Assembly (NCBI RefSeq): GCF_037081835.1
Contig: NZ_CP146516.1
Location: forward strand, 1,325,501 to 1,389,500
From: Spirobacillus cienkowskii
Lineage (GTDB): Bacteria; Bdellovibrionota_B; Oligoflexia; Silvanigrellales; Silvanigrellaceae
Length of the DNA: 64,000 nucleotides
Direction: 5' to 3'
Shown here: in pieces, positions 4,085 through 60,790 of the stretch
Position numbering within the stretch: the first letter of the stretch is position 1
How the letters are laid out: each line of letters opens with the position of its first letter
Notes under the pieces: generated by a model
What the model was told of the DNA's origin: nothing
Databases searched by the model: none
What the model saw: only the letters and a program-made list of their open reading frames with translations
Position numbers and translations under genes: made by a program

Positions 4085-5692
4085 ATGACTTTTATAAGAA
4101 GCCAAATCTCATTAAATTCTGAAGAATACAAATTGAATTTTCAAAAAAATCAGGAAATTTGTACTGAATTAATTCAATTACAAAATATAATAAAAATGGG
4201 TGGAGGTGAAAAGTCGCGCCAACGTCATGCTAATCAATCTAAAATGTTTGTTCGTGAGCGTATTGAAAATTTGTGCGATCCCGAATCACCATTTATTGAA
4301 ATAGGAATGCTTGCCGCACACAACGTTTACGAAGATGTCGTACCAAGCGCAGGAGTTGTAGCAGGAATTGCACAAGTAGCGGGCAAAATGTGCATGATTG
4401 TTGCCAATGATGCCACAGTTAAAGGTGGAACTTACTACCCATTAACTGTTAAAAAGCATTTAAGAGCACAAGAAATTGCATTAGAAAATAAACTTCCCTG
4501 TATTTATTTAGTTGATAGTGGTGGTGCGTTCCTTCCTATGCAGTCTGAAGTTTTTCCAGATAAAGAACATTTTGGACGTATTTTTTTTAATCAAGCTAAA
4601 ATGAGTTCTCTAGGAATTGCACAAATTGCGGCGGTCATGGGATCGTGTACTGCTGGTGGCGCTTATGTTCCTGCAATGAGTGATCAAACTGTGATTGTAA
4701 ATAAAACAGGAACAATTTTTTTAGGTGGTCCTCCTTTAGTAAAGGCTGCAACGGGAGAAGATGTAACGGCAGAATTTTTAGGAGGAGCAAAAGTCCATAC
4801 AGAAATGAGTGGTGTGGCAGATCATTTTGCAGAAGATGATCAACATGCATTATTTATAGTAAAAAATATTATTAGAAATTTAGGCCAAAAGGAACAAGCA
4901 AAAGTTGCGTTAAAAAATTCTGAACCGCCTGCTTATGATCCAAATGAAATTTTAGGTATTTGGCCTAGAGATTTAAAAAGACAAATTGATATACGAGAAA
5001 TTATTGCGAGAATTGTAGATGGAAGTCGGTTTTTTGAATTTAAAGAGCGTTATGCCTCCACTATTGTAACAGGATTTGCATATATAGAAGGTATTCAATG
5101 CGGAATTATTGCAAATAATGGTGTTCTTTTTAGCGAAAGTGCTCTTAAGGTCACGCATTTTATTGAGCTATGTACTAAAGAAAAAATTCCTATCATTTTT
5201 TTACAAAATATAACAGGTTTTATGGTTGGCTCACAATATGAGCGCTCTGGAATTGCAAAAGATGGCGCAAAAATGGTGCATGCTGTCGCTACTGCACAAG
5301 TTCCTAAAATTACATTTTTGTTTGGTGGTTCTTATGGTGCAGGCAATTATGGTATGTGTGGCAGAGCATACGCGCCTCGATTTTTATGGACTTGGCCTTC
5401 TAGTAGAATCTCAGTCATGGGAGGTGAGCAAGCCGCACAAGTGATGCTCACTGTTAAAAAAGAACAGTTTTTGCGCGAAAAGAAAGAATTATCTGCTCAA
5501 GAAATCGAAGAAATTATAAATCCTATTCGCTTAAAATATGAACAAGAAGGACATCCTTTTTTTGCGTCTGCGCGACTTTGGGATGATGGGGTTATTGATA
5601 TGCGAGCAACGCGTGCTATTCTTGCTGCAAGCTTATCCATTTGTTTAAATTCCCCGCTTGAAGAAACAAAAACAGGAATATTGAGAATGTAA
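4085..5692 (+). CDS. liuB: Acyl-CoA carboxylase beta subunit (methylcrotonyl-CoA type)
   Basis: Carboxyltransferase subunit that moves CO2 from carboxybiotin to a 3-methyl-branched enoyl-CoA, most likely 3-methylcrotonyl-CoA in leucine breakdown. The 535 residues match the methylcrotonyl-CoA carboxylase beta family in length and in hallmark segments: [35 protein letters not shown] and [17 protein letters not shown] in the N-terminal half, and [16 protein letters not shown] with [14 protein letters not shown] in the C-terminal half. The start follows a weak AAGGATC. It opens a five-gene operon with AtuA, a hydratase, the biotin subunit and an acyl-CoA dehydrogenase. Because AtuA is present, a geranyl-CoA carboxylase (AtuC) is the main alternative. 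Family is certain, exact substrate inferred. Confidence 0.9.
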
Positions 5693-7623: not shown

Positions 7624-8438
7624 CAATACGTTTTAATGGTAAATTTATTAAAGTTATTGATAAAGAACATGGCGTAAAAAAAATAGTTTTTTCTCGTCCT
7701 GATACCAGAAATGCATTTAACGAAAATATGATTCAAGAAATTACCGAACAACTTAATTTATTAGCTCAAATAACCTCAATTGAAGATATGCGGTTATTAA
7801 TTATTGAAGGTGAAGGAAAAGTTTTTTCTGCTGGTGCGGATTTGATTTATATGAAACAACAAGCACAGCAAAGTGAAGAAAAAAATTTACAAGATGCTCT
7901 GAATTTAGGAAAAATGTTTTTTACTCTTGCAGCTTTTCCTTGTCCTGTTGTTTGTATTGTTCAAGGAGCGGCAATTGGTGGTGGTTTTGGTTTTGTGGCA
8001 TGCGCGGACTTAACAATTGCAGAACAGAATGCTGTTTTTGCAACAAGTGAAGTGCGTTTAGGAATTGTTCCAGGCGTGATTAGTCCTTATATTGTGCGAA
8101 AAATTGGTGTAGCGGCATCATCGCAATTTCTGCTTTCAGGAAAACGATTTTCTGCAAATGAGTCTCAGCAGCTTGGGTTGATTCAATATGTCACTGAGCA
8201 AGAATATTTAAAAGAAAAAAATGAAATGATTATGTATGAATTATTGATGGCAGGACCTCATGCTGCAAGAAGAACTAAAGAACTTATACTTAATGCTTCT
8301 CCGTTACCTTCATTAACGCAAATTGAATTTACGGCAAAACATATTGCACTTGCCCGCTCTAGCCATGAAGGAAAAGCTGGAATTGAAGCATTTTTTGCAA
8401 AAAAAGATCCATATTGGAGTGTAAGGGAACAAGAATAA
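7620..8438 (+). CDS. liuC: Enoyl-CoA hydratase/isomerase (methylglutaconyl-CoA hydratase-like)
   Basis: Crotonase-fold enzyme of 272 residues. Signs are FSRPDTRNAFNENM near the N-terminus, the oxyanion-hole segments EGKVFSAGADL and GAAIGGGFGFVACADL, and FATSEVRLGIVPGVISPYI. In the operon it would hydrate the carboxylation product, 3-methylglutaconyl-CoA to HMG-CoA if the substrate is leucine-derived, or the isohexenyl analogue in an Atu route. GFGFVACADL and EVRLGIVPG lie where crotonases keep catalytic acids, and Glu is visible in EVRLG. The start overlaps the atuA stop by 4 bp and the stop lies one base before the next ATG. No HMG-CoA lyase gene follows, so the final cleavage step must be encoded elsewhere. 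Confidence 0.88.
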   Translation: MTIRFNGKFIKVIDKEHGVKKIVFSRPDTRNAFNENMIQEITEQLNLLAQITSIEDMRLLIIEGEGKVFSAGADLIYMKQQAQQSEEKNLQDALNLGKMFFTLAAFPCPVVCIVQGAAIGGGFGFVACADLTIAEQNAVFATSEVRLGIVPGVISPYIVRKIGVAASSQFLLSGKRFSANESQQLGLIQYVTEQEYLKEKNEMIMYELLMAGPHAARRTKELILNASPLPSLTQIEFTAKHIALARSSHEGKAGIEAFFAKKDPYWSVREQE

Positions 8439-44090: not shown

Positions 44091-44272
44091 TTATACAATA
44101 ATTTTTTTAATTTTATCTGCATAAACTGTTTGAGCTTTGTGAATGGCTAATCGAGAATAGATTTCTAGGGATTGTCGAATTTCATCACCTGAATAAGGTT
44201 CACTAAGAGCATCATCAATGAATTGAGATTTTAATCGCCTAAAAAGAAAGGCGCGGCATCTTACTGCGAAAC
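44091..44272 (-). pseudogene. C-terminal remnant of a tyrosine recombinase
   Basis: On the minus strand the sequence encodes FIDDALSEPYSGDEIRQSLE then IYSRLAIHKAQTVYADKIKK before a stop at 44091. This matches the C-terminus of the intact recombinase at 57635-58345 (IDDALIQPYSGHETRQSLEI). Upstream similarity continues to about 44272 but with a frameshift and stops. The conserved His of the GH motif is Asp here; Tyr is kept. It is a dead fragment, abutting the stop of the MACPF-like gene, and marks the left edge of the accessory island. Confidence 0.8.
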
Positions 44273-45475: not shown

Positions 45476-45634
45476 ATTTTGAGTTTCCTTTCAAAAAATT
45501 ATGAATAAAAAAATTATCATAGAATAATTTTTTTATAATTAAAGGAAAATATTAAAATAATTAATAATTTCCTATTTTTTTAAAATTTATTTATATTTTA
45601 TATGAAATTTACCCGTAAAAATTTTGGTTATGCA

Positions 45635-45674
45635 GGGGTACCGAGCCGCTGAAACGGAAAAAAGGCGGAGTAAG
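45635..45674 (+). repeat. Tn3-family-type terminal inverted repeat
   Basis: Forty bases that begin GGGGTACC and end GGAGTAAG, with an internal CGGAAAAAA. Tn3-family ends are about 38 bp, begin GGGG and end TAAG, and Tn21/Tn1721-type ends have CGGAAAA at this place. Orientation puts the transposon body to the right. The group II intron 3' end abuts it directly. No matching right end is visible in the window. Confidence 0.6.
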
Positions 45675-46085
45675 TAGACCAGGGGAATTTCACCCCCAGC
45701 CTCTTGCAGAACCGTACGTGAGCCTCTCAGCTCATACGGCTCCCATTATTCAGCTATTATAGATTATGGTTTTACAACGTGCCCAATGAATAAATAGATT
45801 CGGATACTGCTGGTGCAATCTCTTAATCATTTCACAAGACTTATTATAACTGTCTCTATTTTTCTTAAATTTCCTTTTTGCCCATTTGATGAGATGAGAA
45901 TTCACTGCTTTCGCTATGATTTGCAGTGCTTTGGAACCATAATGCGCACAATAATAATTTAACCACCCACTGATTACAGGGTTTAACTTTTCAGCAATTT
46001 CTCGAATGTCAGATTGAGTCCAGTGCTTTAATTTCCAATGACGTATTACTTCACGGATATTAAAAGCTGACTTTTTGCTGATTGC
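45675..46085 (-). mobile_element. Group II intron 3' fragment (maturase C-terminus, domains V and VI)
   Basis: On the minus strand, 46085-45750 encodes the end of an intron reverse transcriptase: FNIREVIRHWKLKHWT, then EKLNPVISGWLNYYCAHYGS, the maturase domain, ending at a stop at 45750. Downstream, 45742-45708 forms domain V: GAGCCGTAT, a short bulged stem, and ACGTACGGTTCT, the usual bacterial form. Domain VI and the 3' end follow (GGGGGTGAAATTCCCC, then CTACTTAC). Everything upstream of the maturase domain is lost; the truncation point meets a GC-rich hairpin at 46087. The fragment cannot move by itself. Confidence 0.88.
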
Positions 46086-46086
46086 G

Positions 46087-46126
46087 GGTAAGGATCTGCG
46101 CGCCTCGCGGCGCGCAGATCCTTACC
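46087..46126. repeat. GC-rich perfect hairpin, copy 1
   Basis: Two perfect 18-base arms (GGTAAGGATCTGCGCGCC and complement) around a TCGC loop. The same core, with longer 27-bp arms, recurs at 59267-59324. It lies between the intron fragment and the stop of the MORN-repeat gene, so it may act as a transcription terminator stem, but no T-tract follows. Confidence 0.85.
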
Positions 46127-48643: not shown

Positions 48644-48678
48644 GGCTTTTTGAGCTGGACGCTGCAACCAAACTAGTA
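48644..48678 (-). repeat. Dispersed ~38-bp repeat, copy R1
   Basis: Read on the minus strand it contains TTGGTTGCAGCGTCCAGCTC followed by AAAAAGCC. It is the most diverged at its 5' end (ACTAGT where other copies have GACGTC). It lies between the second intron fragment and the lipoprotein gene. Confidence 0.7.
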
Positions 48679-48689
48679 ACTATTCGTTA

Positions 48690-49655: not shown

Positions 49656-49697
49656 CAGTTTTTTGAGCTGGTAGTTGCAACCGAACGCTATTTCTCA
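49656..49697 (-). repeat. Dispersed ~38-bp repeat, copy R2
   Basis: Minus-strand reading has CGGTTGCAACTACCAGCTCA followed by an A run. It is the most diverged copy in the centre. On the plus strand it continues to TATTTCTCAAG, similar to the end of R6. It lies upstream of the lipoprotein gene. Confidence 0.65.
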
Positions 49698-49824: not shown

Positions 49825-50649
49825 TTATTTTGTGTTCAGAATTAATTCAATATTTCTTATATCTAATTCATTAAATTTAATACCGTATTGATTAAACCTA
49901 TCTTTATTAGCTTTGAATATTTTTATGTTATTGTTTTTTAAGATATTTTTTAATACTATAGTAAAATCTTTTGCAATAGGGTTATTATAAAAGTTAATAC
50001 CCAAAAATATAGAATCAAGTTGTAATCCTAAATCATTTAAATCATGATTACCTTTATTATTTAGTATTCTATATTCATCTTCATGATCCCAAAACTTATT
50101 ATACTTAAACCTACTCATTTCTCTATAATAGTCATGAATAGTTGGTATGTCATAAAATGACACTTCTGGATTTGAAGTATACTCAACTTTAATAATTTTA
50201 TTTTTATTACCTACTTTATATTTTAAGCAAATTCCTTTGTGGCAATAGCTATAGTTTGACCATAAATTTATATTATCATTAGTTCCAGAAAAACAACATA
50301 CTCCGATTTTTTTTGCCTCATGATGATAAACTTGGGTAAAAGACTTTAATAAATCATGTTGTTTAATATAATTTTCAAAACCGTTAATTTTATCTTTATT
50401 ATTTTTGCAATTTACAAGAAAACCAAATAATGGATTACAATTAATAGCATTATCAATAAATTTAATCTTATCAAATTTATTTTGTGAATTAAAAGTTAAA
50501 TTATGCTCAAATTCAAAAGGATCGTTAAATTCAGTAAATTCTGGAAAGTATAATTTTTTATTTAAAATTATATCTTTTAATCTATCAAGACAAATCTTAG
50601 AGTTAAGTGGTCTATATTTATATAAATGGTCAGGAATATTAAAACGCAT
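49825..50649 (-). CDS. DUF2971 family protein
   Basis: About 274 residues. The DUF2971 landmarks are HLYKYRPLNSKICLDRL, FPEFTEFNDPFEFEHN, VCCFSGTNDNINLWSNYSYC and HKGICLKYK, in the right order. The family is common in mobile and defence islands but its activity is not known. I place the start at ATG 50649; a GTG at 50661 is possible and would add four residues. The gene is very AT-rich. It is followed by a decayed serine recombinase and lies inside the accessory island. Confidence 0.82.
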   Translation of the reverse strand: MRFNIPDHLYKYRPLNSKICLDRLKDIILNKKLYFPEFTEFNDPFEFEHNLTFNSQNKFDKIKFIDNAINCNPLFGFLVNCKNNKDKINGFENYIKQHDLLKSFTQVYHHEAKKIGVCCFSGTNDNINLWSNYSYCHKGICLKYKVGNKNKIIKVEYTSNPEVSFYDIPTIHDYYREMSRFKYNKFWDHEDEYRILNNKGNHDLNDLGLQLDSIFLGINFYNNPIAKDFTIVLKNILKNNNIKIFKANKDRFNQYGIKFNELDIRNIELILNTK

Positions 50650-50694
50650 TTTGAATAACACTCTCTAGATTATGATAATCTTATAAATAATTAA

Positions 50695-52359: not shown

Positions 52360-52956
52360 TTATTTTGGCAATTTGATAAAGCCATATCCTTCAATTTTTC
52401 CATCAGGCCTTTTTCTAAAAGAATTTTCAATTTGCTCAAAAAATCTATTGTCATTTCTTGAAATTTTTCTATACACAGCTCCTGTTACAAGATCTGCAAA
52501 CTGTATTCCGACGCTTAAATGCGAAGGAGCCATAAAAACTCCTTCAATTAAATTTTGATAAAACGCAGAGCTTGGTTTATTTGATTGAAGTAGATTTTGA
52601 TGCAAATGTCTCAGTTGATCATCATCTTTTGGCATGCGGTGATCACATATAATGATATCATTTATTTTTCCGCCTATAATTCTTGAAAGATCTTGCAAGT
52701 AATATTGAAAACGTTCGGTCATTTGTTTGTAAGCGTACCAGTAGAGATCGTTTTGTGTGAATACATAACTTAACTCATATACTTTTTTAATATCAACAAC
52801 TACAGCTATAATTTTAATAGATTTGTATTTTGAAATGATCTTATAAAGCCCCGCCCTAAGTTCTTCTTTTTGATCAGCATTTAAATGCGACATAGAATTT
52901 TGACGTGATTCACTTTTTGATGGCCGTTTGAGCTGGACGCTGCAACCAGACGTCAT
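52360..52956 (-). pseudogene. DUF3800 family protein, N-terminus replaced by a dispersed repeat
   Basis: The C-terminal two thirds of a DUF3800 protein: ICDHRMPKDDDQLRHLHQNL, then VGIQFADLVTGAVYRK and DGKIEGYGFIKLPK. The conserved N-terminal segment with the catalytic-looking DESG is missing. The open frame instead starts inside repeat R3, which encodes MTSGCSVQLKRP. The repeat thus truncated the gene and by chance supplies an ATG. DUF3800 proteins are RNase H-like and common in defence islands. A 198-residue product could still be made, but function is unlikely without the lost acidic residue. Confidence 0.75.
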
Positions 52957-52959
52957 TTC
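52922..52959 (-). repeat. Dispersed ~38-bp repeat, copy R3
   Basis: Minus-strand reading is AAATGACGTCTGGTTGCAGC, then GTCCAGCTCAAACGGCC. It is inverted relative to R4 at 58362-58398, and the two bracket gajB, gajA, the Tn3 transposase remnant and the tyrosine recombinase (5.4 kb). Confidence 0.85.
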
Positions 52960-52971
52960 TGTTTGATAGGA

Positions 52972-54874
52972 TTATGAAAGCATTTCTGTGATAAAACGTG
53001 ACTGGGTTTGGGGTTTTACGTCTCCCCAAGGCATTATTCTTGTTTCTGGATAAGTAATATAAATCCATCTTCTTGATCTTGTAATAGCAACAAAGGCACT
53101 GTTTCTTTCTTCATCGATTTCTTTCTTATTGCGAGCTCGATAATCAGGAAAAACTCCTTCGCACATTCCTATAAGAAATACGATATCTTTTTCTAATCCT
53201 TTCATTGTATGAACAGTACTTAAAGTTAATCCATTTGATTTATAATCCTCATTTATTTGACCAAGTGCCATTGCATTACGAAAAGCACTAAGAGATATTC
53301 CTAGGCCTTTTTTCTTAAAAATAATCCAATTTGTTTTAAATTCATTAAGTTCATTTAAGGAAATGTCAAGTTCATTTAATAAAGAAGAATTTTGAGAATT
53401 TTTGGCAACTAGTTCTTTTATTTTATTTTCAATTTCAATACAGAATTTAGTTATATTTGGGTCATTTAAATCCAATTTATGAATCAAATTTAAAAGCATT
53501 ATTTGCAATTCAGGAAATAAAATATTTTGATGAATTATCTTAGGAACGAGCTCTTGAAGTATATTTTCATTTCCCCAAGTGTCTGGAGGATTTATTTTTA
53601 AAACCGAACATAATTTTTTACCATCAACCCAATCTTTTAAATTTAATCTGAGACGAATAGCAAGAATCGAGTATTTTTCCAAATAAAGAAGATGGTTCTA
53701 CTTGTCTCTCTCCTTTTTTTAGCGAATAAGCTATTTTGTTGTTTTTAAGACACTCTTCAAGTTTCTTAAAAACAAATTTGTTTCTTCCAATTATAACTAT
53801 ATTATTTAAAGTTATATCCCCCTCAATTTCGGGATCATTTTTAATCTGAAGTAATTCTTTAATTTTATCAATAATCCAAGATGCCTCAGAGTCTTCATCT
53901 TTTAAATTTTGAAAAAATCTTTTACCATCTAAGGCAAAATCGGATTCGATTTGAGATCCTGGCTTCAGCTTATTAGATAAGTGTATAACGGCTTTTGAGC
54001 TTCTATAATTTTCATTTAATCTAAATTTCAATGGATTAAAGTCATTTACAAATTGAGTACAAAAAAAATCATTTGAGGAACCATTGAAACCAAAAATCAT
54101 TTGATTGGGATCTCCTACCATCATAAGACTTGTTATTTCGTCACTACATAAAGCTTTTATAAATTCATATTGAGCTTTATTGAGATCTTGAGCTTCATCA
54201 ACACAAATATGTTTATAATTAGTTCGATATATTTTTCCACACCATGGTTGTTCAAGAAGAATTCGATGAGAATAAACTAAAATATCGTCAAAATCTATTC
54301 CACCGCTTTCCAGTAATGCTTCTTGATAAGCTACAAATATTTGCCAAAAATTTTTGCTGTTTATATATTTCTCTTTAATCTCATTTTCATTTAATAATTC
54401 CCTTTTTATAATAGAAAATTGTTCCATATATCTTTGAATTATTTGTTCTCGCTCTTTCTTGGTTTTTTTATCATGCACATTTAAAAATTCATCAATATTG
54501 ATTCCTCTATTACGTAAAGATTGCAAAAAAACAGTTTTGCAATCTTGTTCTCTATCATAAATGTGCAATTCTGATGGTAAACCAATTGTATGTCCATATT
54601 GATTTAAGATACGCTGAGCTACTCCATGAACAGTAGAAATCCAACAACAATCTTCAATCCCTTCAAAATTATTTAGTCGAAGAAGCATTTCTTCAGCTGC
54701 TTTATTAGTAAAAGTGAGTGCAATAATGCCTTCTTTAATTTTAGTTTGAAAAATATGGCTAATTCGTTCAGTTAATACTCTAGTTTTACCTGATCCAGCA
54801 GCTGCTAATACTTGCAGAGAAACACCAATTGGAGCATGAACAATTTCTTTTTGTGCAATTGATAATGTAGTCAT
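52972..54874 (-). pseudogene. gajB: Gabija helicase GajB (UvrD-like), frameshifted
   Basis: UvrD/PcrA-type superfamily 1A helicase of the Gabija anti-phage system. The first frame (54874-53624, 416 codons) has Walker A AAAGSGKT at 24-31, CVDEAQDLNKAQYEF, GDPNQMIFGFNGS and LNENYRSSKAV. The second frame (to 52972) has TLSTVHTMKGLEKDIVFLIG and FVAITRSRRWIYITYP, motifs V and VI. The join is near 53650-53670, where removing one T gives KILDLAIRLRLNLKDW and one 633-residue protein. As read, the product loses motifs V-VI and should be inactive. Its ATG overlaps the gajA stop by 4 bp. Sequencing error at one base would restore the system. Confidence 0.85.
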
Positions 54875-56721
54875 TTCAATACCCCATTTTTAATTTTATC
54901 GAAAAATTCAATTATCTTTGGAGGAAATTTCTCAATCTCTAATTCAACAATTCTTTTAGCTATTTCTGGTGCATATTTGGTTTTATTATCATTTAAAATA
55001 TCTATTAAAGCATTATTATAAAATGTTGGATTGGATGTATAATCTCTAATTTTATCATTATAAATATCTTGATTACAAGTTCTGCAAACTGGTTCATTTG
55101 TTTTGAATCTGCCCTTAGATGTTCCATTTTTTTTAGAAATCCAATTATCAATAGCACCTGAACCATCTAATTCTTTTATAGTTAATTCAATGATTTCTCT
55201 ATAATTTGTTGAAATTAAATATCCTTCAAAATCTGTTCCATCAAGAGTAGTTATGTTTGGATAATTCTTAATTTCCTCATCAGTACTACCATAAACTTTA
55301 TCGTAAACTTTTTTTAGATCATCCCTAGTTTTTTTTTCACCATCACTAAAAATATATACAGGAATTGAAAAATCTTTAGCAAAAGATAAAAAGGGAAAGT
55401 ATTTATTTCCGGAACCGCCAACTCCAATAAAATTTATACCCATTTCGAAAGATTCTTTTCCAAAATACTTATGAAAAAGAGTAGGAAGAGCCTGAGCTTC
55501 TGTCTCGCCTTCACATAAAATCAATGCCCGTGCAAAAAGAATTTCTCCTCTGGAATAAATAACTTCTCTTTGAATTTTTCTTTTGCTTTCTGTATCAAGC
55601 TCTGAGCTTAGAAATAAAGCCACTATATTATCAGAAGATTTTTTAAGATATCTTAACTCGGATTGACTAGCTATTGCAGCTAAATAAGGAGAATGAGTAC
55701 TAACAATTATCTGACCTTCAGATTCAACAAGTTGACGATAAAGAGTTTTTTGAGCATTGGGATGTAAATGAGCTTCAGGTTCCTCAGCCGCAATAATTGG
55801 AAAAAATGCTTTAGATTCTTCAGCATTTTTTTCAACCATTAAATCAGTAAATGATTTGACTGTAAGAATGGAAGCCCAGCTTCTTGTACCCATTCCATGA
55901 TACTCCATAGAAAATGTATTATTTGGGTTTTCACCAAAATGTATTGAGAAATGCTTTGAAAGATCTCTAACTTTCTTAGGAAATGGTGTAATTTCAGCAT
56001 TACCAGAACCATGAAATGATTGATTTAATTTTTCTAAATTTGTTTTCAAACTATTAAGATCATGACTTTTACTTACAGCTTCATGATTAATATTTTGAAT
56101 AAGTGATTCTAATTTATTAACTTCTTCTTGATTATATTTAATTTGAGATAATACTCTTCCTACAAATGAATTTTTTTCTTTAAGTTCTGTATGAATATCA
56201 CGTTGAGCATCAATAGATATAAATTTAATATTTTCAATTCTATTTGATATTTTAGATTCAATATTTTTTTCTGTTAACCATTCATTTAATGAGGGCCATT
56301 TTTTTAATGTAGTTCTTTTGCAATCAAAACTACCTTTATTTATTATATTTGATGCCACTTTTGTTCTAATTGCAAAAAATTGATCACCATTTAATTCTGT
56401 TTGTATGTTATCACTAAATTCCATGGCCCAATTGTCATTAAATAACTGAGTTCGATTTTTATTATTATCAACTGGAATAATCTTAACATCAACAATTATT
56501 TCTTGAACTCTATTTTCATCTAAATTGATATGAAAATCTTCTTCAGATAAATATCGAAAATAGTCACCTAGTGCTAAATGTAATGCTTTTAGTATAGAGG
56601 TTTTACCGGAATTATTAGCTCCAATTAGAATTGTTACATTAGATAAGGATATTTCTAGATTTTTAATTCCTCGGAAACCAGCAATTCTAATTGTATCGAT
56701 TAATATGCTCATAAATTTCAT
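54871..56721 (-). CDS. gajA: Gabija nuclease GajA (OLD-family ATPase-Toprim)
   Basis: 616-residue OLD-family protein. ATPase: Walker A IGANNSGKT at 33-41, a coiled-coil insertion at about 180-240, Walker B-like AAEEPEAHLHP, and IVSTHSPYLAA. Toprim nuclease from about 395: LCEGETEAQALP with the catalytic Glu, GVGGSGNKYFPFL, and IFSDGEKKTRDDLK. In Gabija, GajA cuts phage DNA and is relieved from ATP inhibition when nucleotides are depleted; GajB helicase assists. It overlaps gajB by 4 bp, the expected operon. An ATG three codons in (56712) is a possible alternative start. This gene appears intact while its partner is frameshifted. Confidence 0.88.
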   Translation of the reverse strand: MKFMSILIDTIRIAGFRGIKNLEISLSNVTILIGANNSGKTSILKALHLALGDYFRYLSEEDFHINLDENRVQEIIVDVKIIPVDNNKNRTQLFNDNWAMEFSDNIQTELNGDQFFAIRTKVASNIINKGSFDCKRTTLKKWPSLNEWLTEKNIESKISNRIENIKFISIDAQRDIHTELKEKNSFVGRVLSQIKYNQEEVNKLESLIQNINHEAVSKSHDLNSLKTNLEKLNQSFHGSGNAEITPFPKKVRDLSKHFSIHFGENPNNTFSMEYHGMGTRSWASILTVKSFTDLMVEKNAEESKAFFPIIAAEEPEAHLHPNAQKTLYRQLVESEGQIIVSTHSPYLAAIASQSELRYLKKSSDNIVALFLSSELDTESKRKIQREVIYSRGEILFARALILCEGETEAQALPTLFHKYFGKESFEMGINFIGVGGSGNKYFPFLSFAKDFSIPVYIFSDGEKKTRDDLKKVYDKVYGSTDEEIKNYPNITTLDGTDFEGYLISTNYREIIELTIKELDGSGAIDNWISKKNGTSKGRFKTNEPVCRTCNQDIYNDKIRDYTSNPTFYNNALIDILNDNKTKYAPEIAKRIVELEIEKFPPKIIEFFDKIKNGVLK

Positions 56722-57128
56722 TTCTTTAGTAAAATAATTATAAATTTTAATTTGTTAAAAATATTTATTCTTTTCATTTTAAAGCAATTATTCTCCATTT
56801 AGATTAACCAAGAAATCATTTTAACTTATTTTTGATAAATATATGATACATATTCATTTAAATTTTAATAGAATTACTCTAAAATAGAAGATAGTAGAGT
56901 GTATTTATACCTTTTCAACATTTAAGCAAACTACTCCTAAAGAATAAGAAAATGCAGACTTTTTTAACTTTATCTTGCAAAGTTCGTATTTGTCAAGTAA
57001 GGTAAGAACTCGAATTGAATTTTGAGATTATTCTTTCACAACTCTTTAATTTTAAAAATTTAAACACTTAAAAAGTTTGTACTCTGTTACTTCTGCGAAC
57101 TTTTTTACACGTTAAGGATTGCAAATAA
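56722..57128. other. Region between gajA and the Tn3 transposase remnant
   Basis: A 407-bp AT-rich stretch that must contain the gajAB promoter on the minus strand; no clear box is visible. Its right third holds three copies of an AAAGTTYGYA motif, described with the inverted-repeat site at 57071-57104. Confidence 0.45.
57071..57104. promoter_or_regulatory. Imperfect inverted repeat, possible recombinase core site
   Basis: AAAAGTTTGT at 57071-57080 faces GCGAACTTTT at 57095-57104 with a 14-bp centre. A direct copy, AAAGTTCGTA, lies at 56979-56988. An inverted core plus a directly repeated arm, just before a Tn3 transposase and near a tyrosine recombinase, is the layout of TnpI resolution sites of Tn4430-type transposons. 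The match is by layout only; a Tn3 end is another reading, since 57109-57116 reads ACGTTAAG. Confidence 0.35.
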
Positions 57129-57622
57129 ATGAAGCAAAAATGGTCTGATCAAGAATTAGAAGAGCAGTATACAATTTTACCTGAAGAACTTGTTCTTTTA
57201 AAAGATATTCGGGAAAAAACAACTCCTCCATTCGCAATTCTTATTACATTTTATAGAAATGAAAAACGATTTCCAAAATCTATGAGTGAAATTCCTAAAC
57301 CCATTTCTGATTACATATGCACGCAACTAGGTTATTCAAAAAAAGAAAAATTTTTTATGGTAAAAACAGCGAATTTGCATCAAATCGCATAGAGGAATAA
57401 GAACTTTCCGTATTGGCATTGCATCTACTGCAATCATCGTTAGTATATATTAACACTCTTATGATTCAAGATGTCTTATCTGAAAGCTATTGGTTTAGTC
57501 TCATGCAAAAAGATGATTTTAGAGCTATAACTCCATTACTATATAAACAGCTTAACCCATATGGAAAATTTACATTAGACATGAATCTAAGAATTCCATT
57601 AAAAGAATCAGATGTAGCATAA
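57129..57622 (+). pseudogene. tnpA: Tn3-family transposase reduced to its N- and C-terminal ends
   Basis: 57129-57392 encodes the transposase N-terminal domain (DUF4158): WSDQELEEQYTILPEELVLL, RFPKSMSEIPKPISDYI, then a TAG stop after LHQIA. 57401-57622 encodes the extreme C-terminus of the Tn3 catalytic domain: LALHLLQSSLVYINTLMIQ and AITPLLYKQLNPYGKFTLD. About 850 residues in between, including all DDE catalytic residues, are deleted. Full Tn3 transposases have about 1000 residues. The remnant lies 13 bp before a tyrosine recombinase gene, so the parent was probably a TnpA-TnpI type element. Confidence 0.85.
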
Positions 57623-57634
57623 TTTGAGGTAAAA

Positions 57635-58345
57635 ATGTTAGACATTAAAAGAACACCTCCACCCAAAAAAGCTAAAGAAATTGCTAAAATATTAAAATCT
57701 GAGTTTCCTAATTATTTTTATTTAAAAGATGTTTTTAAATTTTTACGAAAAGAACTAGAAATCAAAGTGGAGAAAAAAAGTAAAAAACTTCCTTATGTTC
57801 CAAACGAGGAAGAACTTAAAAAATTTTATAATTCTGTTTGGAATTCAAAAAATTTCAAAGACATGTTGATTATTAAAACTCTTCTATACACCGGAATAAG
57901 TGTATCTGAACTGACTAATATAAAATTAGAAGACGTTGATTTTGATAAATGTCAAATAAAAGTTATAGAAGGTAAAGGAAAAAAAGATCGAATAGTTCCT
58001 TTTCCAAGTCAATTTAAAGAAATACTCATGGGATACATGCAGACAAATAAACAGAAAAATGGGATATACTTATTTGAATCTTCTTGGCATAAAAAATATA
58101 CTACTAGAGGTATTCAAAAAATGTTTAAGAAATATGTAAAAGAAGCAAATATAATGGGAAATTTAACTCCGCATAAAATGCGTCATTATTTATTTCGATG
58201 GCTTAAGACCCAAGGTATTGATGATGCTCTTATTCAACCCTATTCTGGGCATGAAACTAGACAATCACTTGAAATTTACTCACGTTTGACTATTCATGAA
58301 GCACAAGCTGCTTATAACGAGAAAATAAAAAAATTTCCTTTATAA
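57635..58345 (+). CDS. Tyrosine recombinase/integrase with substituted catalytic Arg
   Basis: A 236-residue recombinase. The catalytic core has GKGKKDRIVPFP (beta-strand Lys), HKMRH with His180 and Arg183, PYSGHETRQSLEIYSRL with His206 and Tyr215. Box I reads LLYTGISVSELTNIKLEDVD: Ser89 stands where the family has the first catalytic Arg (usually TGLRVSEL). Strand cleavage should be badly impaired. The N-terminal SAM-like domain is short (about 50 residues). It follows the Tn3 transposase remnant by 13 bp and is followed by repeat R4 after 17 bp. A frameshifted relative lies at 44091-44272. It may be a TnpI-type resolvase or a stand-alone integrase. Confidence 0.82.
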   Translation: MLDIKRTPPPKKAKEIAKILKSEFPNYFYLKDVFKFLRKELEIKVEKKSKKLPYVPNEEELKKFYNSVWNSKNFKDMLIIKTLLYTGISVSELTNIKLEDVDFDKCQIKVIEGKGKKDRIVPFPSQFKEILMGYMQTNKQKNGIYLFESSWHKKYTTRGIQKMFKKYVKEANIMGNLTPHKMRHYLFRWLKTQGIDDALIQPYSGHETRQSLEIYSRLTIHEAQAAYNEKIKKFPL

Positions 58346-58361
58346 TAAATAGCTTATAAAG

Positions 58362-58398
58362 AACTGACGTCTGGTTGCAGCGTCCGGCTCATAAGGCC
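58362..58398 (+). repeat. Dispersed ~38-bp repeat, copy R4
   Basis: Plus-strand reading ACTGACGTCTGGTTGCAGCG, then TCCGGCTCATAAGGCC. It is inverted relative to R3. The 145 bp after it, up to the lipoprotein gene, are richer in GC than the surroundings and contain nothing I recognise. Confidence 0.85.
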
Positions 58399-59266: not shown

Positions 59267-59324
59267 TTGGAGAGCGGTAAGGATCTGCGCGCCTCGCGGC
59301 GCGCAGATCCTTACCGCTCTCCAA
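59267..59324. repeat. GC-rich perfect hairpin, copy 2 (27-bp stem)
   Basis: Arms 59267-59293 and 59298-59324 are perfect complements (TTGGAGAGCGGTAAGGATCT then GCGCGCC, and complement) around a TCGC tetraloop. The inner 18 bp and loop are identical to the hairpin at 46087-46126. It lies between two divergent genes, 30 bp before repeat R5. Confidence 0.92.
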
Positions 59325-59354
59325 CCATCGAAATAAATAGTGACGCATTTTATA

Positions 59355-59392
59355 AAATGACGTCTGGTTGCAGCTGGGTGCTCAAAAGGCCA
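59355..59392 (+). repeat. Dispersed ~38-bp repeat, copy R5
   Basis: Plus-strand reading AAATGACGTCTGGTTGCAGC, then TGGGTGCTCAAAAGGCC. It is inverted relative to R6 at 60625-60661; together they enclose the glycosyltransferase gene. Confidence 0.85.
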
Positions 59393-59514
59393 TTTCATCT
59401 GGAATCTTTTTGCGACAGAACCTTAAAAATATATTGTTTAAAATTATTAAAAAAATTATAAGTATATTGTGGCATATTGAAAGTTTTTCGATATTTTAGA
59501 CCATGGAATATATT

Positions 59515-60501
59515 ATGATTATTAATAAAATTCATTATATTTGGATAGGTTCATTACTTCCAGAAAAGTACATTTACAATATTTCTTATCCATATTTTAA
59601 TAGCAATAATGAAATCTATATTTGGACAGATCAACCTATTAAGAATGAGATCAGATTTCGTAATTATTTAAGATATTCGTTAAACACTCAAATGAAAAGA
59701 TTGTTTTTTTATGATATTAAAATCTTAGACTCATATTGCAAAGAAATCCTTTTTCCTAAATTAGATTTTATTGAAAGAAAAACTTTAGTTGATACTTTGA
59801 TATTAGAGTACTCTTTTTATTCTGATCGCAGAATTCCACAATACGATCTTGCCGTTTGCAAAAGACTAGGCAATCTTGCGACATTAAGTGATATTTTGAG
59901 ACTCATAATTCTATATAAAGAAGGAGGAATGTATATTGATTGCGATAATACTTTTAGAAAACAAGCAAACTACAATAACAATCTAAACAGCAATAGATCA
60001 GTGCTCAAAATAAAAAATACTAAAAAATTAGAAATCGATTTACCTTATATTAATAAACTCTATTCCCATCAGGCTTTTTTTGGAAACAGTATTTTAGCTT
60101 CACTTCCAAGATCAGAAGGCACATTAATAGCTATTCGGAATACTTTAAAAGTTATAAAAGATCATTCAAAATATTTTACTTATAAAAATTTTCTTAGAGA
60201 TTTATATATAGAAAATTCTCAATATAAACATTTTTTATATCAGTTATTAAAAAATAAAAATATTAATTTCGATTCAGATTTACGTCGGTTTGGAAAATTT
60301 AAACCAACTATGCATAGTGAATCTAAGTTTTGTATAAATATGATGATTTCATATATTTATCCATATGTTACCTTGGCAATAATGATCGGCCCTAAAGTGA
60401 TTGCAAATTTTGAAGAAAATTATTGTGATACTCTATCAGATATTTTTCCATTTGAACCGGAAGCTATTATTAATGTAAATTCTGATCAAGAATGGCTTTA
60501 A
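59515..60501 (+). CDS. TcdA/TcdB-like glycosyltransferase with DXD motif (candidate effector)
   Basis: About 328 residues. INKIHYIWIGSLLP at the N-terminus and LSDILRLIILYKEGGMYIDC with the DCD motif (Asp146 and Asp148 counted from the ATG at 59503) match the catalytic domain of large clostridial toxins and related GT-A enzymes with a DXD sugar-binding region. These transfer a sugar from a UDP-sugar to host proteins such as small GTPases; other members are capsular transferases, so the toxin role is inference. No secretion signal is visible. I prefer ATG 59515, with GGAAT upstream, over ATG 59503. The gene lies between dispersed repeats R5 and R6, and so looks like island cargo. Confidence 0.75.
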   Translation: MIINKIHYIWIGSLLPEKYIYNISYPYFNSNNEIYIWTDQPIKNEIRFRNYLRYSLNTQMKRLFFYDIKILDSYCKEILFPKLDFIERKTLVDTLILEYSFYSDRRIPQYDLAVCKRLGNLATLSDILRLIILYKEGGMYIDCDNTFRKQANYNNNLNSNRSVLKIKNTKKLEIDLPYINKLYSHQAFFGNSILASLPRSEGTLIAIRNTLKVIKDHSKYFTYKNFLRDLYIENSQYKHFLYQLLKNKNINFDSDLRRFGKFKPTMHSESKFCINMMISYIYPYVTLAIMIGPKVIANFEENYCDTLSDIFPFEPEAIINVNSDQEWL

Positions 60502-60550: not shown

Positions 60551-60624
60551 ATATTGAACCTCTAAGCCGGTAGCTTCGTTTTGACGCCACTTGAAGCCAG
60601 AAAATAATTTTTTTCCCTTTAAAA

Positions 60625-60661
60625 GGCCTTTTGAGCCGCCATCTGCAACCAGTCGTCATTT
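60625..60661 (-). repeat. Dispersed ~38-bp repeat, copy R6
   Basis: Minus-strand reading AAATGACGACTGGTTGCAGA, then TGGCGGCTCAAAAGGCC. It marks the right edge of the accessory island as far as these repeats show. The rest of the 540-bp gap to the CZB gene holds only the AT-rich hairpin at 60791-60862. Confidence 0.82.
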
Positions 60662-60790
60662 CTCAAAGCAGGTCGATACCCCTATTTGAGGTACTAAATT
60701 TCCAAATTGGATTAAAATTCATTCTTCCAAAACTTTCACACATCATAATGCTAGTTATCATAAGTTAAATAATTATACATGTTGATTTAT

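What the first reader, a model, noticed from the sequence alone, without database searches (positions are those of the whole stretch)
52922..58398. Gabija defence pair bracketed by inverted repeats with Tn3 and recombinase remnants
Seen: an OLD-Toprim gene (54871-56721) overlaps a UvrD-like helicase by 4 bp, the gajA-gajB layout. Both lie with a Tn3 transposase remnant and a tyrosine recombinase between inverted copies R3 and R4 of a ~38-bp repeat. Inference: the defence pair travelled on a Tn3-related element that has since decayed. R3 cuts into a DUF3800 gene, so insertion at the left edge is visible.
Basis: partly seen in the sequence, partly recalled or inferred. Interest (0 to 1): 0.7.

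Follow-up and report, generated by a model that had tools for sequence, protein, structure and literature searches.

The report
Tn3 transposon relic carrying Gabija defence
A decayed Tn3-family jumping element in this bacterial chromosome carries a Gabija anti-phage gene pair (one gene now broken), and related elements in sister species carry other predicted phage-defence genes, so such transposons likely act as shuttles for phage defence.

Summary
gajA overlaps gajB by 4 bp, and both lie between inverted repeats R3 and R4 with Tn3 tnpA fragments and a tyrosine recombinase. R3 and R4 are Tn3-family ends: the left end of an intact same-genus Tn3 (target duplication TATTT/TATTT, recombinase 75% identical) has R2, R3, R4, R6 and one further Tn3 end as its five best matches in the window. 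The element looks dead: about 820 of 997 TnpA residues are missing, the recombinase has Ser where 119 of 120 listed homologues have Arg, and gajB is split over two frames. gajAB was not found in a draft genome of the same species.

The wider result is the cargo. The intact sister element carries candidate system PDC-M68 in the slot where this one carries Gabija, and 6 of 8 delimited Tn3 elements of the genus hold a strong PADLOC match. A Yersinia massiliensis plasmid independently has tnpA, tnpR, gajA and gajB between identical 38-bp Tn3 ends. My searches found no paper reporting Gabija as Tn3 cargo.

Limits: R3 and R4 share no target duplication and are two of six such ends, so the original pairing is uncertain; defence activity is untested.

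The parts
52922..52960 (-). R3, left terminal inverted repeat of the Tn3-family relic
   Evidence: 24 of 39 to the left end of an intact congener Tn3
52972..53682 (-). gajB, C-terminal part in a second frame (profile 399-623)
   Evidence: PADLOC GajB 273 bits; 11 bp from R3
53624..54874 (-). gajB, N-terminal part (UvrD-like helicase, profile 2-400)
   Evidence: PADLOC GajB 579 bits, Pfam UvrD-helicase
54871..56721 (-). gajA, AAA ATPase with OLD-type Toprim domain
   Evidence: PADLOC GajA 786 bits, Pfam AAA_15 and OLD-like_TOPRIM
56971..57110 (+). likely resolution site of the recombinase, between cargo and tnpA (role inferred)
   Evidence: conserved with the intact congener element; perfect 13-nt inverted pair in the congener copy
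57129..57392 (+). tnpA N-terminal remnant (DUF4158)
   Evidence: residues 4-84 of a 997-aa TnpA, 38% identity
57350..57607 (+). tnpA C-terminal remnant
   Evidence: residues 908-993 of 997, 76% identity; Pfam DDE_Tnp_Tn3 51.5 bits
57635..58345 (+). tyrosine recombinase, likely cointegrate resolvase, with Ser at a conserved Arg
58360..58398 (+). R4, right terminal inverted repeat
   Evidence: 23 of 39 to the congener left end
48644..48680 (-). R1, further end of the same type (left-facing)
   Evidence: only 16 of 39 to the congener end
49657..49695 (-). R2, further end of the same type (left-facing)
   Evidence: 24 of 39
59353..59391 (+). R5, further end of the same type (right-facing)
   Evidence: 21 of 39
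60625..60663 (-). R6, further end of the same type (left-facing)
   Evidence: 23 of 39
60556..60598 (+). left end of a second Tn3 type, like the decayed congener element
   Evidence: 87.5% to that element's end; 24 of 39 to the intact element's end
52360..52956 (-). DUF3800 gene truncated at its 5' side by R3 (outside the unit)
   Evidence: Pfam DUF3800 from profile position 30 of 149
44094..44261 (-). 3' remnant of a second recombinase gene
   Evidence: 73% identical over 56 residues to the congener recombinase

Best explanation
Window 52922-58398 is the relic of a Tn3-family transposon, ending in terminal inverted repeats R3 and R4, that likely moved here as one unit with a Gabija operon (gajA plus a now frame-broken gajB) predicted to have protected its host against phages. 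Inferred working of the intact ancestor: TnpA bound the 38-39-bp ends and moved the unit by replicative transposition; the tyrosine recombinase encoded just after tnpA resolved the cointegrate at the paired-repeat site (56971-57110) between cargo and tnpA; the defence operon rode in the slot between the left end and that site. Shown here: the ends, the slot, the relic genes, and a different candidate defence system in the same slot of an intact sister element. Decay shown here: most of tnpA is missing, the recombinase has Ser at a conserved Arg, gajB is split over two frames, DUF3800 is truncated at R3. That the element can no longer move and that Gabija no longer works are inferences.
For: Scanning all 39-mers of the window with the left end of the intact congener element (L068 10060-16961, TATTT outside both ends) gives as five best matches 60556, R3, R2, R6 and R4. 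Recombinase 75% identical to that element's; TnpA pieces 38% and 76% identical to its TnpA; site upstream of tnpA conserved. Closest plasmid homologues of the recombinase that I opened follow directly on a Tn3 tnpA, 3 of 3 (Priestia megaterium, Deinococcus radiodurans, Deinococcus sp.). GajA and GajB profiles. gajB ends 11 bp from R3. gajAB not found in other genus members or in the same-species draft. The same two-gene cargo sits between identical 38-bp Tn3 ends in a Yersinia massiliensis plasmid.
Against: R3 and R4 share no 5-bp target duplication (flanks). Six like ends lie within 12 kb in both orientations, so R4 may first have paired with R1 or R2. The right end of the intact element does not pick out R3 or R4 (19 of 39 each; other window positions reach 23), and R1 is weak (16 of 39). 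The gajB break is a single frame shift and could be an assembly error. The Ser for Arg change also occurs in 1 of 120 listed homologues.
Confidence: 0.8

Rival explanations
1. R3 and R4 belong to different, overlapping Tn3 insertions, and the unit that travelled was larger (R2-R4 or R1-R4, also holding the PDC-S31 candidate gene and DUF3800), or gajAB was caught between ends by recombination.
For: R1, R2 and R3 are all left ends and R4, R5 right ends. R2 and R4 outer flanks agree at 4 of 5 bases (TAGTC, TAGTT; flanks), R3 and R4 do not. A PDC-S31 match (120 bits) lies between R2 and R3. In the same species R-type ends occur in other surroundings.
Against: 4 of 5 bases is weak evidence when several pairings are tried. 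R3 and R4 are the best-preserved pair (33 of 37 alike), and gajB ends 11 bp from R3, as expected of cargo flush with its end.
Confidence: 0.15
2. The repeats are crossover sites of the tyrosine recombinase: a cassette or invertible array like an integron or a Xer-site module, in which each interval is a swappable gene.
For: Conserved arms flank a variable centre, several intervals hold one gene, and a recombinase lies directly beside R4.
Against: The repeats match the proven ends of an intact Tn3 and the ends of a second element. Ten strands folded as DNA gave z-scores between -1.6 and 0.5, no attC-like fold. The recombinase has its own conserved site upstream of tnpA and has Ser at a conserved Arg.
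Confidence: 0.03
3. gajAB was already resident, or came by another route, and Tn3 elements later inserted around it by chance in an insertion-prone island.
For: The region also holds a group II intron end, a second Tn3 type and a second recombinase remnant, as expected of an insertion sink.
Against: gajAB is absent from the other genus members searched and not found in the same-species draft. It abuts R3 on one side and the transposon's resolution site on the other, the place that cargo takes in the intact sister element.
Confidence: 0.05

Closest known systems
Tn3-family transposons (family survey PMC7157771, passages seen)
   Same: 38-40-bp terminal inverted repeats, about 1000-aa TnpA (here as remnants; whole in the sister element), a recombinase and a resolution site, passenger genes outside the transposition module
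   Different: The tyrosine recombinase gene follows tnpA, whereas the survey describes tnpI as colinear with tnpA with the irs site upstream of and next to tnpI, and finds tnpI in only three of 190 members. Cargo is a Gabija pair; the passages seen discuss toxin-antitoxin and resistance passengers.
Gabija (GajA-GajB)
   Same: Adjacent, overlapping gajA-gajB, with GajA and GajB profile matches over nearly the whole length
   Different: gajB is split over two frames. By sequence alone the match to the solved Gabija chains is weak (GajA 33 bits, GajB 41 bits).
Tn7-like transposons with defence cargo (PMC8649781, passages seen)
   Same: Transposons whose cargo includes Gabija and CBASS
   Different: Another transposon family, with another transposition machinery
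[quoted passage not shown]
   Same: Tn3-type ends without a working transposase, several close together, able in principle to be moved in trans
   Different: Those are 262-bp elements and composites of them; here the intervals R1-R2, R2-R3 and R4-R5 have ends facing the same way and R5-R6 ends facing outward
Tn3 carrying Gabija in Yersinia massiliensis plasmid NZ_CP028488.1
   Same: gajA and gajB inside Tn3-type ends, GajA 53% identical over 478 aa
   Different: Serine resolvase tnpR in place of the tyrosine recombinase, other end sequence, tnpA whole; gajA directly follows tnpR

Membership tests
Tn3-family transposon (as a relic) | Terminal inverted repeats of about 38-40 bp of the family | tested here: met
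   R3/R4 39 nt, 90% complementary; match the left end of an intact Tn3 with target duplication
Tn3-family transposon (as a relic) | TnpA of the family | tested here: met
   Met only as fragments: residues 4-84 and 908-993 of 997; not intact
Tn3-family transposon (as a relic) | Resolvase and resolution site | tested here: inconclusive
   Recombinase and conserved upstream region present; Ser at a conserved Arg; no activity test possible
Tn3-family transposon (as a relic) | 5-bp target duplication | tested here: not met
   R3 flank TTGAT, R4 flank TAGTT. So the Tn3 origin of ends and genes is claimed, but R3-R4 as one insertion unit is not proven
Tn4430/TnpI-type Tn3 | tnpI upstream of and colinear with tnpA, irs next to tnpI | tested here: not met
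   Recombinase gene lies after tnpA, here, in the sister element and in three plasmid elements; definition from PMC7157771 passages
Gabija | GajA: AAA ATPase with OLD-type Toprim domain | tested here: met
   PADLOC 786 bits; Pfam AAA_15, OLD-like_TOPRIM
Gabija | GajB: UvrD-like helicase next to gajA | tested here: met
   Profile positions 2-400 and 399-623 in two frames; frame broken
Gabija | Anti-phage activity | not testable with these tools
   Needs plaque assays
Integron cassette array (attC sites) | Folding, same-facing attC sites and an integron integrase | tested here: not met
   No significant fold; copies face both ways; integron-integrase model 81 bits against a cut-off of 265
TIME / mobile insertion cassette | Inward-facing Tn3 ends around DNA without tnpA | tested here: inconclusive
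   Possible for nested R1/R2/R3 with R4/R5; no target duplications found (flanks)

The most novel reading that the evidence does not exclude
Tn3-family transposons, best known as antibiotic-resistance carriers, are in this genus a modular shuttle for anti-phage immunity: elements with a conserved resolution site-tnpA-recombinase backbone swap whole defence systems in one slot (Gabija, PDC-M68, PDC-S02), Tn3 elements of other types in the genus carry a CBASS-type cyclase, a dCTP deaminase and a SLATT protein, and Gabija has been captured by Tn3 elements more than once, here and in Gammaproteobacteria. Tn3 would then be a further general transposon vehicle of defence systems beside the Tn7-like elements.
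Probability: 0.45. Interest if true: 0.66.

Novelty: new variant of a known kind. Interest (0 to 1): 0.5.

Why it matters
Defence systems move between bacteria, and which vehicles carry them is an open question. Tn7-like carriers of Gabija and CBASS are described (PMC8649781, passages); Tn3 carriers of Gabija did not appear in my searches. A conserved backbone with a swappable defence slot makes the question testable: pairs of ends delimit the cargo exactly, so unknown genes inside such elements become a list of candidate defence systems. The decayed copy here shows the other half of the cycle, a defence locus breaking down with its carrier.

Tried and rejected
Integron/attC or Xer-site reading of the repeats: rejected. 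Chance repeat: rejected.

Target duplications: none exact for the pairings of left and right ends that I compared by eye; R2/R4 agree at 4 of 5 (flanks).

Empty site: the same-species genome G056 is a draft of 130 contigs. Its left flank matches the window to 39441, and its katG flank to 61282, where sequence diverges; the left contig ends about 100 bases on. No clean empty site could be read. Whether G056 has an intact tnpA is untested: the TnpA search had no query file and gave nothing. DUF3800: no homologue in 27 relatives.

One search printed the intact element's ends out of register; one search repeats the comparison in register and is the one used.

Scan of named genomes with the recombinase alignment gave two distant loci, not used. 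Copies of the Yersinia gajAB: none in the E. coli genomes at megablast sensitivity; in the plasmids only that record covers >= 80% of the query (capped at 5000 records). No tRNA gene in 36000-64000. The organism could not be named with the tools used.

The cargo count is small and its 100-bit limit was chosen after seeing the results. Over 100 bits: 9 of 22 cargo genes in 8 elements against 1 of 20 flanking ORFs; one-sided Fisher p 0.007. Genes: window 2 of 2, G003 intact 2 of 2, G003 decayed 1 of 2, L069 1 of 3, L070 0 of 5, L071 0 of 3, L072 1 of 2, L073 2 of 3; the two gajB ORFs and the two dCTPase pieces count as one gene each. Dropped before the count: L074, L075, L076 (and L079 of a neighbouring genus), where the scan found no pair of ends, and a second locus of that genus (L043), not scanned. 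L075 has a type I restriction set beside Tn3 fragments. ORF L073:6998-7621 and small ORFs were not scanned. The 20 flanking ORFs come from L069-L073 and are not all of theirs; the one flanking hit (Ppl, 274 bits) is itself a defence family. A further scan of eight ORFs of the island and of G056 gave one over 100 bits, PDC-S31, and is not in the count.
Full report
1. What is in the window. The 64-kb window has 31% G+C and lies in a 2.81-Mb single-contig genome. From 52922 to 58398, in + strand order, lie R3; two pieces of gajB (52972-53682 and 53624-54874, minus strand); gajA (54871-56721, minus strand); a gap of about 400 bp; a TnpA N-terminal remnant with a DUF4158 match (57129-57392); a TnpA C-terminal remnant (57350-57607); a 236-aa tyrosine recombinase (57635-58345); and R4. 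PADLOC's GajA profile gives 786 bits and its GajB profile 579 and 273 bits; the GajB profile runs 2-400 in the first ORF and 399-623 in the second, so the gene is whole in content but broken in frame. By sequence the match to solved Gabija chains is weak (GajA 33 bits, GajB 41 bits).

2. The repeats. A 37-bp consensus occurs six times: R1, R2, R3 and R6 with their GGCC end to the left, R4 and R5 with it to the right. The rest of the genome gave two chance-level matches (150 of 425 first-look candidates scored). Conserved arms around a variable centre made me test a recombinase-site reading first. Ten strands folded as DNA gave z-scores from -1.6 to 0.5, so there is no attC-like fold.

3. What the repeats are. 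A congener (G003) has an intact element at L068 10060-16961: 39-nt ends (31 of 39 alike), TATTT directly outside both, a 997-aa Tn3 TnpA and a 236-aa recombinase 75% identical to the window's. Scanning every 39-mer of the window with its left end gives as best matches 60556 (24), R3 (24), R2 (24), R6 (23) and R4 (23); R5 has 21, as does one position outside the repeats (60386), and R1 only 16. The right end of the same element is less telling: its best matches are 60898 and 60556 (23 each), while R6 has 20 and R3 and R4 19 each. A decayed second element in G003 (L068 5500-10054) has ends that agree with the window consensus at 23 and 24 of 37 positions and inverted arms of 94 nt, 87% complementary. 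R3 and R4 are therefore Tn3-family ends.

4. The recombinase and its site. Among six recombinases aligned, only the window's has Ser at this conserved Arg. Of the best 120 of 2609 homologues, 119 have Arg (107 by a motif search, 12 read from the printed stretches) and one, P0203, has Ser. That this is the first catalytic Arg of tyrosine recombinases is recalled, not tested. The nearest homologue, 98% identical, has Arg. In plasmids the closest homologues that I opened follow directly on a Tn3 tnpA, 3 of 3. The stretch upstream of tnpA is conserved between window (56971-57110) and intact element. In the latter it holds a perfect 13-nt inverted pair 12 nt apart and a related motif upstream; in the window the same scan finds no such pair. 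It resembles the paired inverted repeats described for TnpI and TnpS/T sites (PMC7157771, passages). Its role is inferred.

5. Decay. TnpA residues 85-907 of 997 are missing; the recombinase has the Ser; gajB is split; the DUF3800 ORF left of R3 starts inside R3 and lacks the first 29 profile positions; R3 and R4 share no 5-bp duplication (flanks). More relics lie around: a recombinase 3' end at 44094-44261, an arm of the second Tn3 type at 45576-45635, an end of that type near 60556-60598, and a group II intron end at 45669-45744.

6. Distribution. Of 56 genomes searched, this one included, 5 have a GajA-like match at E <= 0.001; the best other is 27% identical. In a same-species draft genome (G056, katG 98% identical) the 3475-bp stretch from gajA to the recombinase found only a 119-bp match to the recombinase end. 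It is about 96% complete, so absence is likely but not certain. It has four R-type ends at E <= 0.05, one beside katG with the last bases of a recombinase gene inside it. R-type ends thus sit in different surroundings in two genomes of one species. The nearest GajA proteins in the large protein database are 67% identical (best 120 listed).

7. The cargo. In the intact G003 element the place of the Gabija pair is taken by PDC-M68B and PDC-M68A (574 and 264 bits); in the decayed one by a DUF1016 nuclease, PDC-S02 (481 bits). Tn3 elements of the genus with serine resolvases and other end types hold an oligonucleotide cyclase (332 bits; CBASS is my reading of that label) and PDC-S02 (482 bits) in L073, a SLATT protein (135 bits) in L069, and a dCTP deaminase split over two ORFs (386 and 74 bits) in L072. 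L070 (ends at 8139 and 16476, AATAG outside both) has 59 bits at best, and L071 39 bits. So 6 of 8 delimited elements carry a match over 100 bits; by gene 9 of 22 against 1 of 20 flanking ORFs (p 0.007; limit chosen afterwards). PDC names are computational candidates, so this is a pattern to test and no proof.

8. Gabija on Tn3 elsewhere. Of 575 plasmid records with a GajA match I read the surroundings of nine. The Yersinia massiliensis plasmid has tnpA (1001 aa), tnpR, gajA and gajB between two identical 38-bp ends; its 5-bp flanks differ (TATTC, TAATA). Aeromonas hydrophila pK533-strA has a tnpR 77% identical to that one directly before gajA and a degenerate end (24 of 38) after gajB, with no tnpA in the stretch. 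The other seven list no Tn3 gene in the 6-8 kb read on each side (less at two record ends); that gene table is incomplete. Gabija is an occasional Tn3 cargo.

9. Literature. Five held papers contain both 'Gabija' and 'Tn3'. I saw passages of three (PMC8649781, PMC12342005, PMC8987985), none reporting Gabija on a Tn3 element; of the other two I saw the listing only. PMC8649781 reports Gabija and CBASS in Tn7-like elements. A survey of 190 Tn3-family members (PMC7157771, passages) finds tnpI in three; in its held text 'defense' occurs once, in a reference title. Searches listed no paper whose title reports defence cargo of Tn3 elements; I did not open those papers apart from the ones named. Absence from this library is not absence from print.

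10. Verdict. Added here: the identity of the ends from an intact sister element, the broken gajB and altered recombinase, the six-end context, and the defence cargo shared across Tn3 elements of the genus and matched by an independent Tn3-Gabija element. The unit is a new relic of a known family with unusual cargo; the wider pattern deserves a survey.

Noticed in passing
window 46087-46126 and 59267-59324: Two copies of a perfect G+C-rich hairpin (GGATCTGCGCGCC arms) in an A+T-rich island; related copies lie in contigs C104 and C125 of the same-species genome.
   Followed up: partly
window 59318-59353: A 36-nt piece 89% complementary to the inside of the recombinase gene (58173-58208) lies directly beside R5, in inverted orientation; the same junction recurs in G056 C125.
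   Followed up: partly
window 49825-50661: Between R2 and R3 lies a gene matching the defence candidate family PDC-S31 (120 bits).
   Followed up: no
window 45669-45744 (-): Group II intron end (RF00029, 59 bits) next to an arm of the second Tn3 type.
   Followed up: no
window 59503-60501: A glycosyltransferase gene with Gly_transf_sug and TcdA/TcdB-type catalytic-domain matches (34 and 28 bits) lies between the outward-facing ends R5 and R6.
   Followed up: no
L110 3857-6915 (G056, beside katG): In the same species an R-type end with the last bases of a recombinase gene stands beside katG, followed by a 174-aa ORF and an ORF that looks like an IS transposase.
   Followed up: partly
L075 9878-14924 (G005): A type I restriction-modification set (methyltransferase 525 bits, restriction subunit 452 bits) lies beside Tn3 transposase fragments; no pair of ends found.
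   Followed up: no
L072 12224-13907 (G005): A dCTP deaminase defence gene split over two ORFs inside a Tn3 element, a second broken defence cargo in the genus.
   Followed up: no
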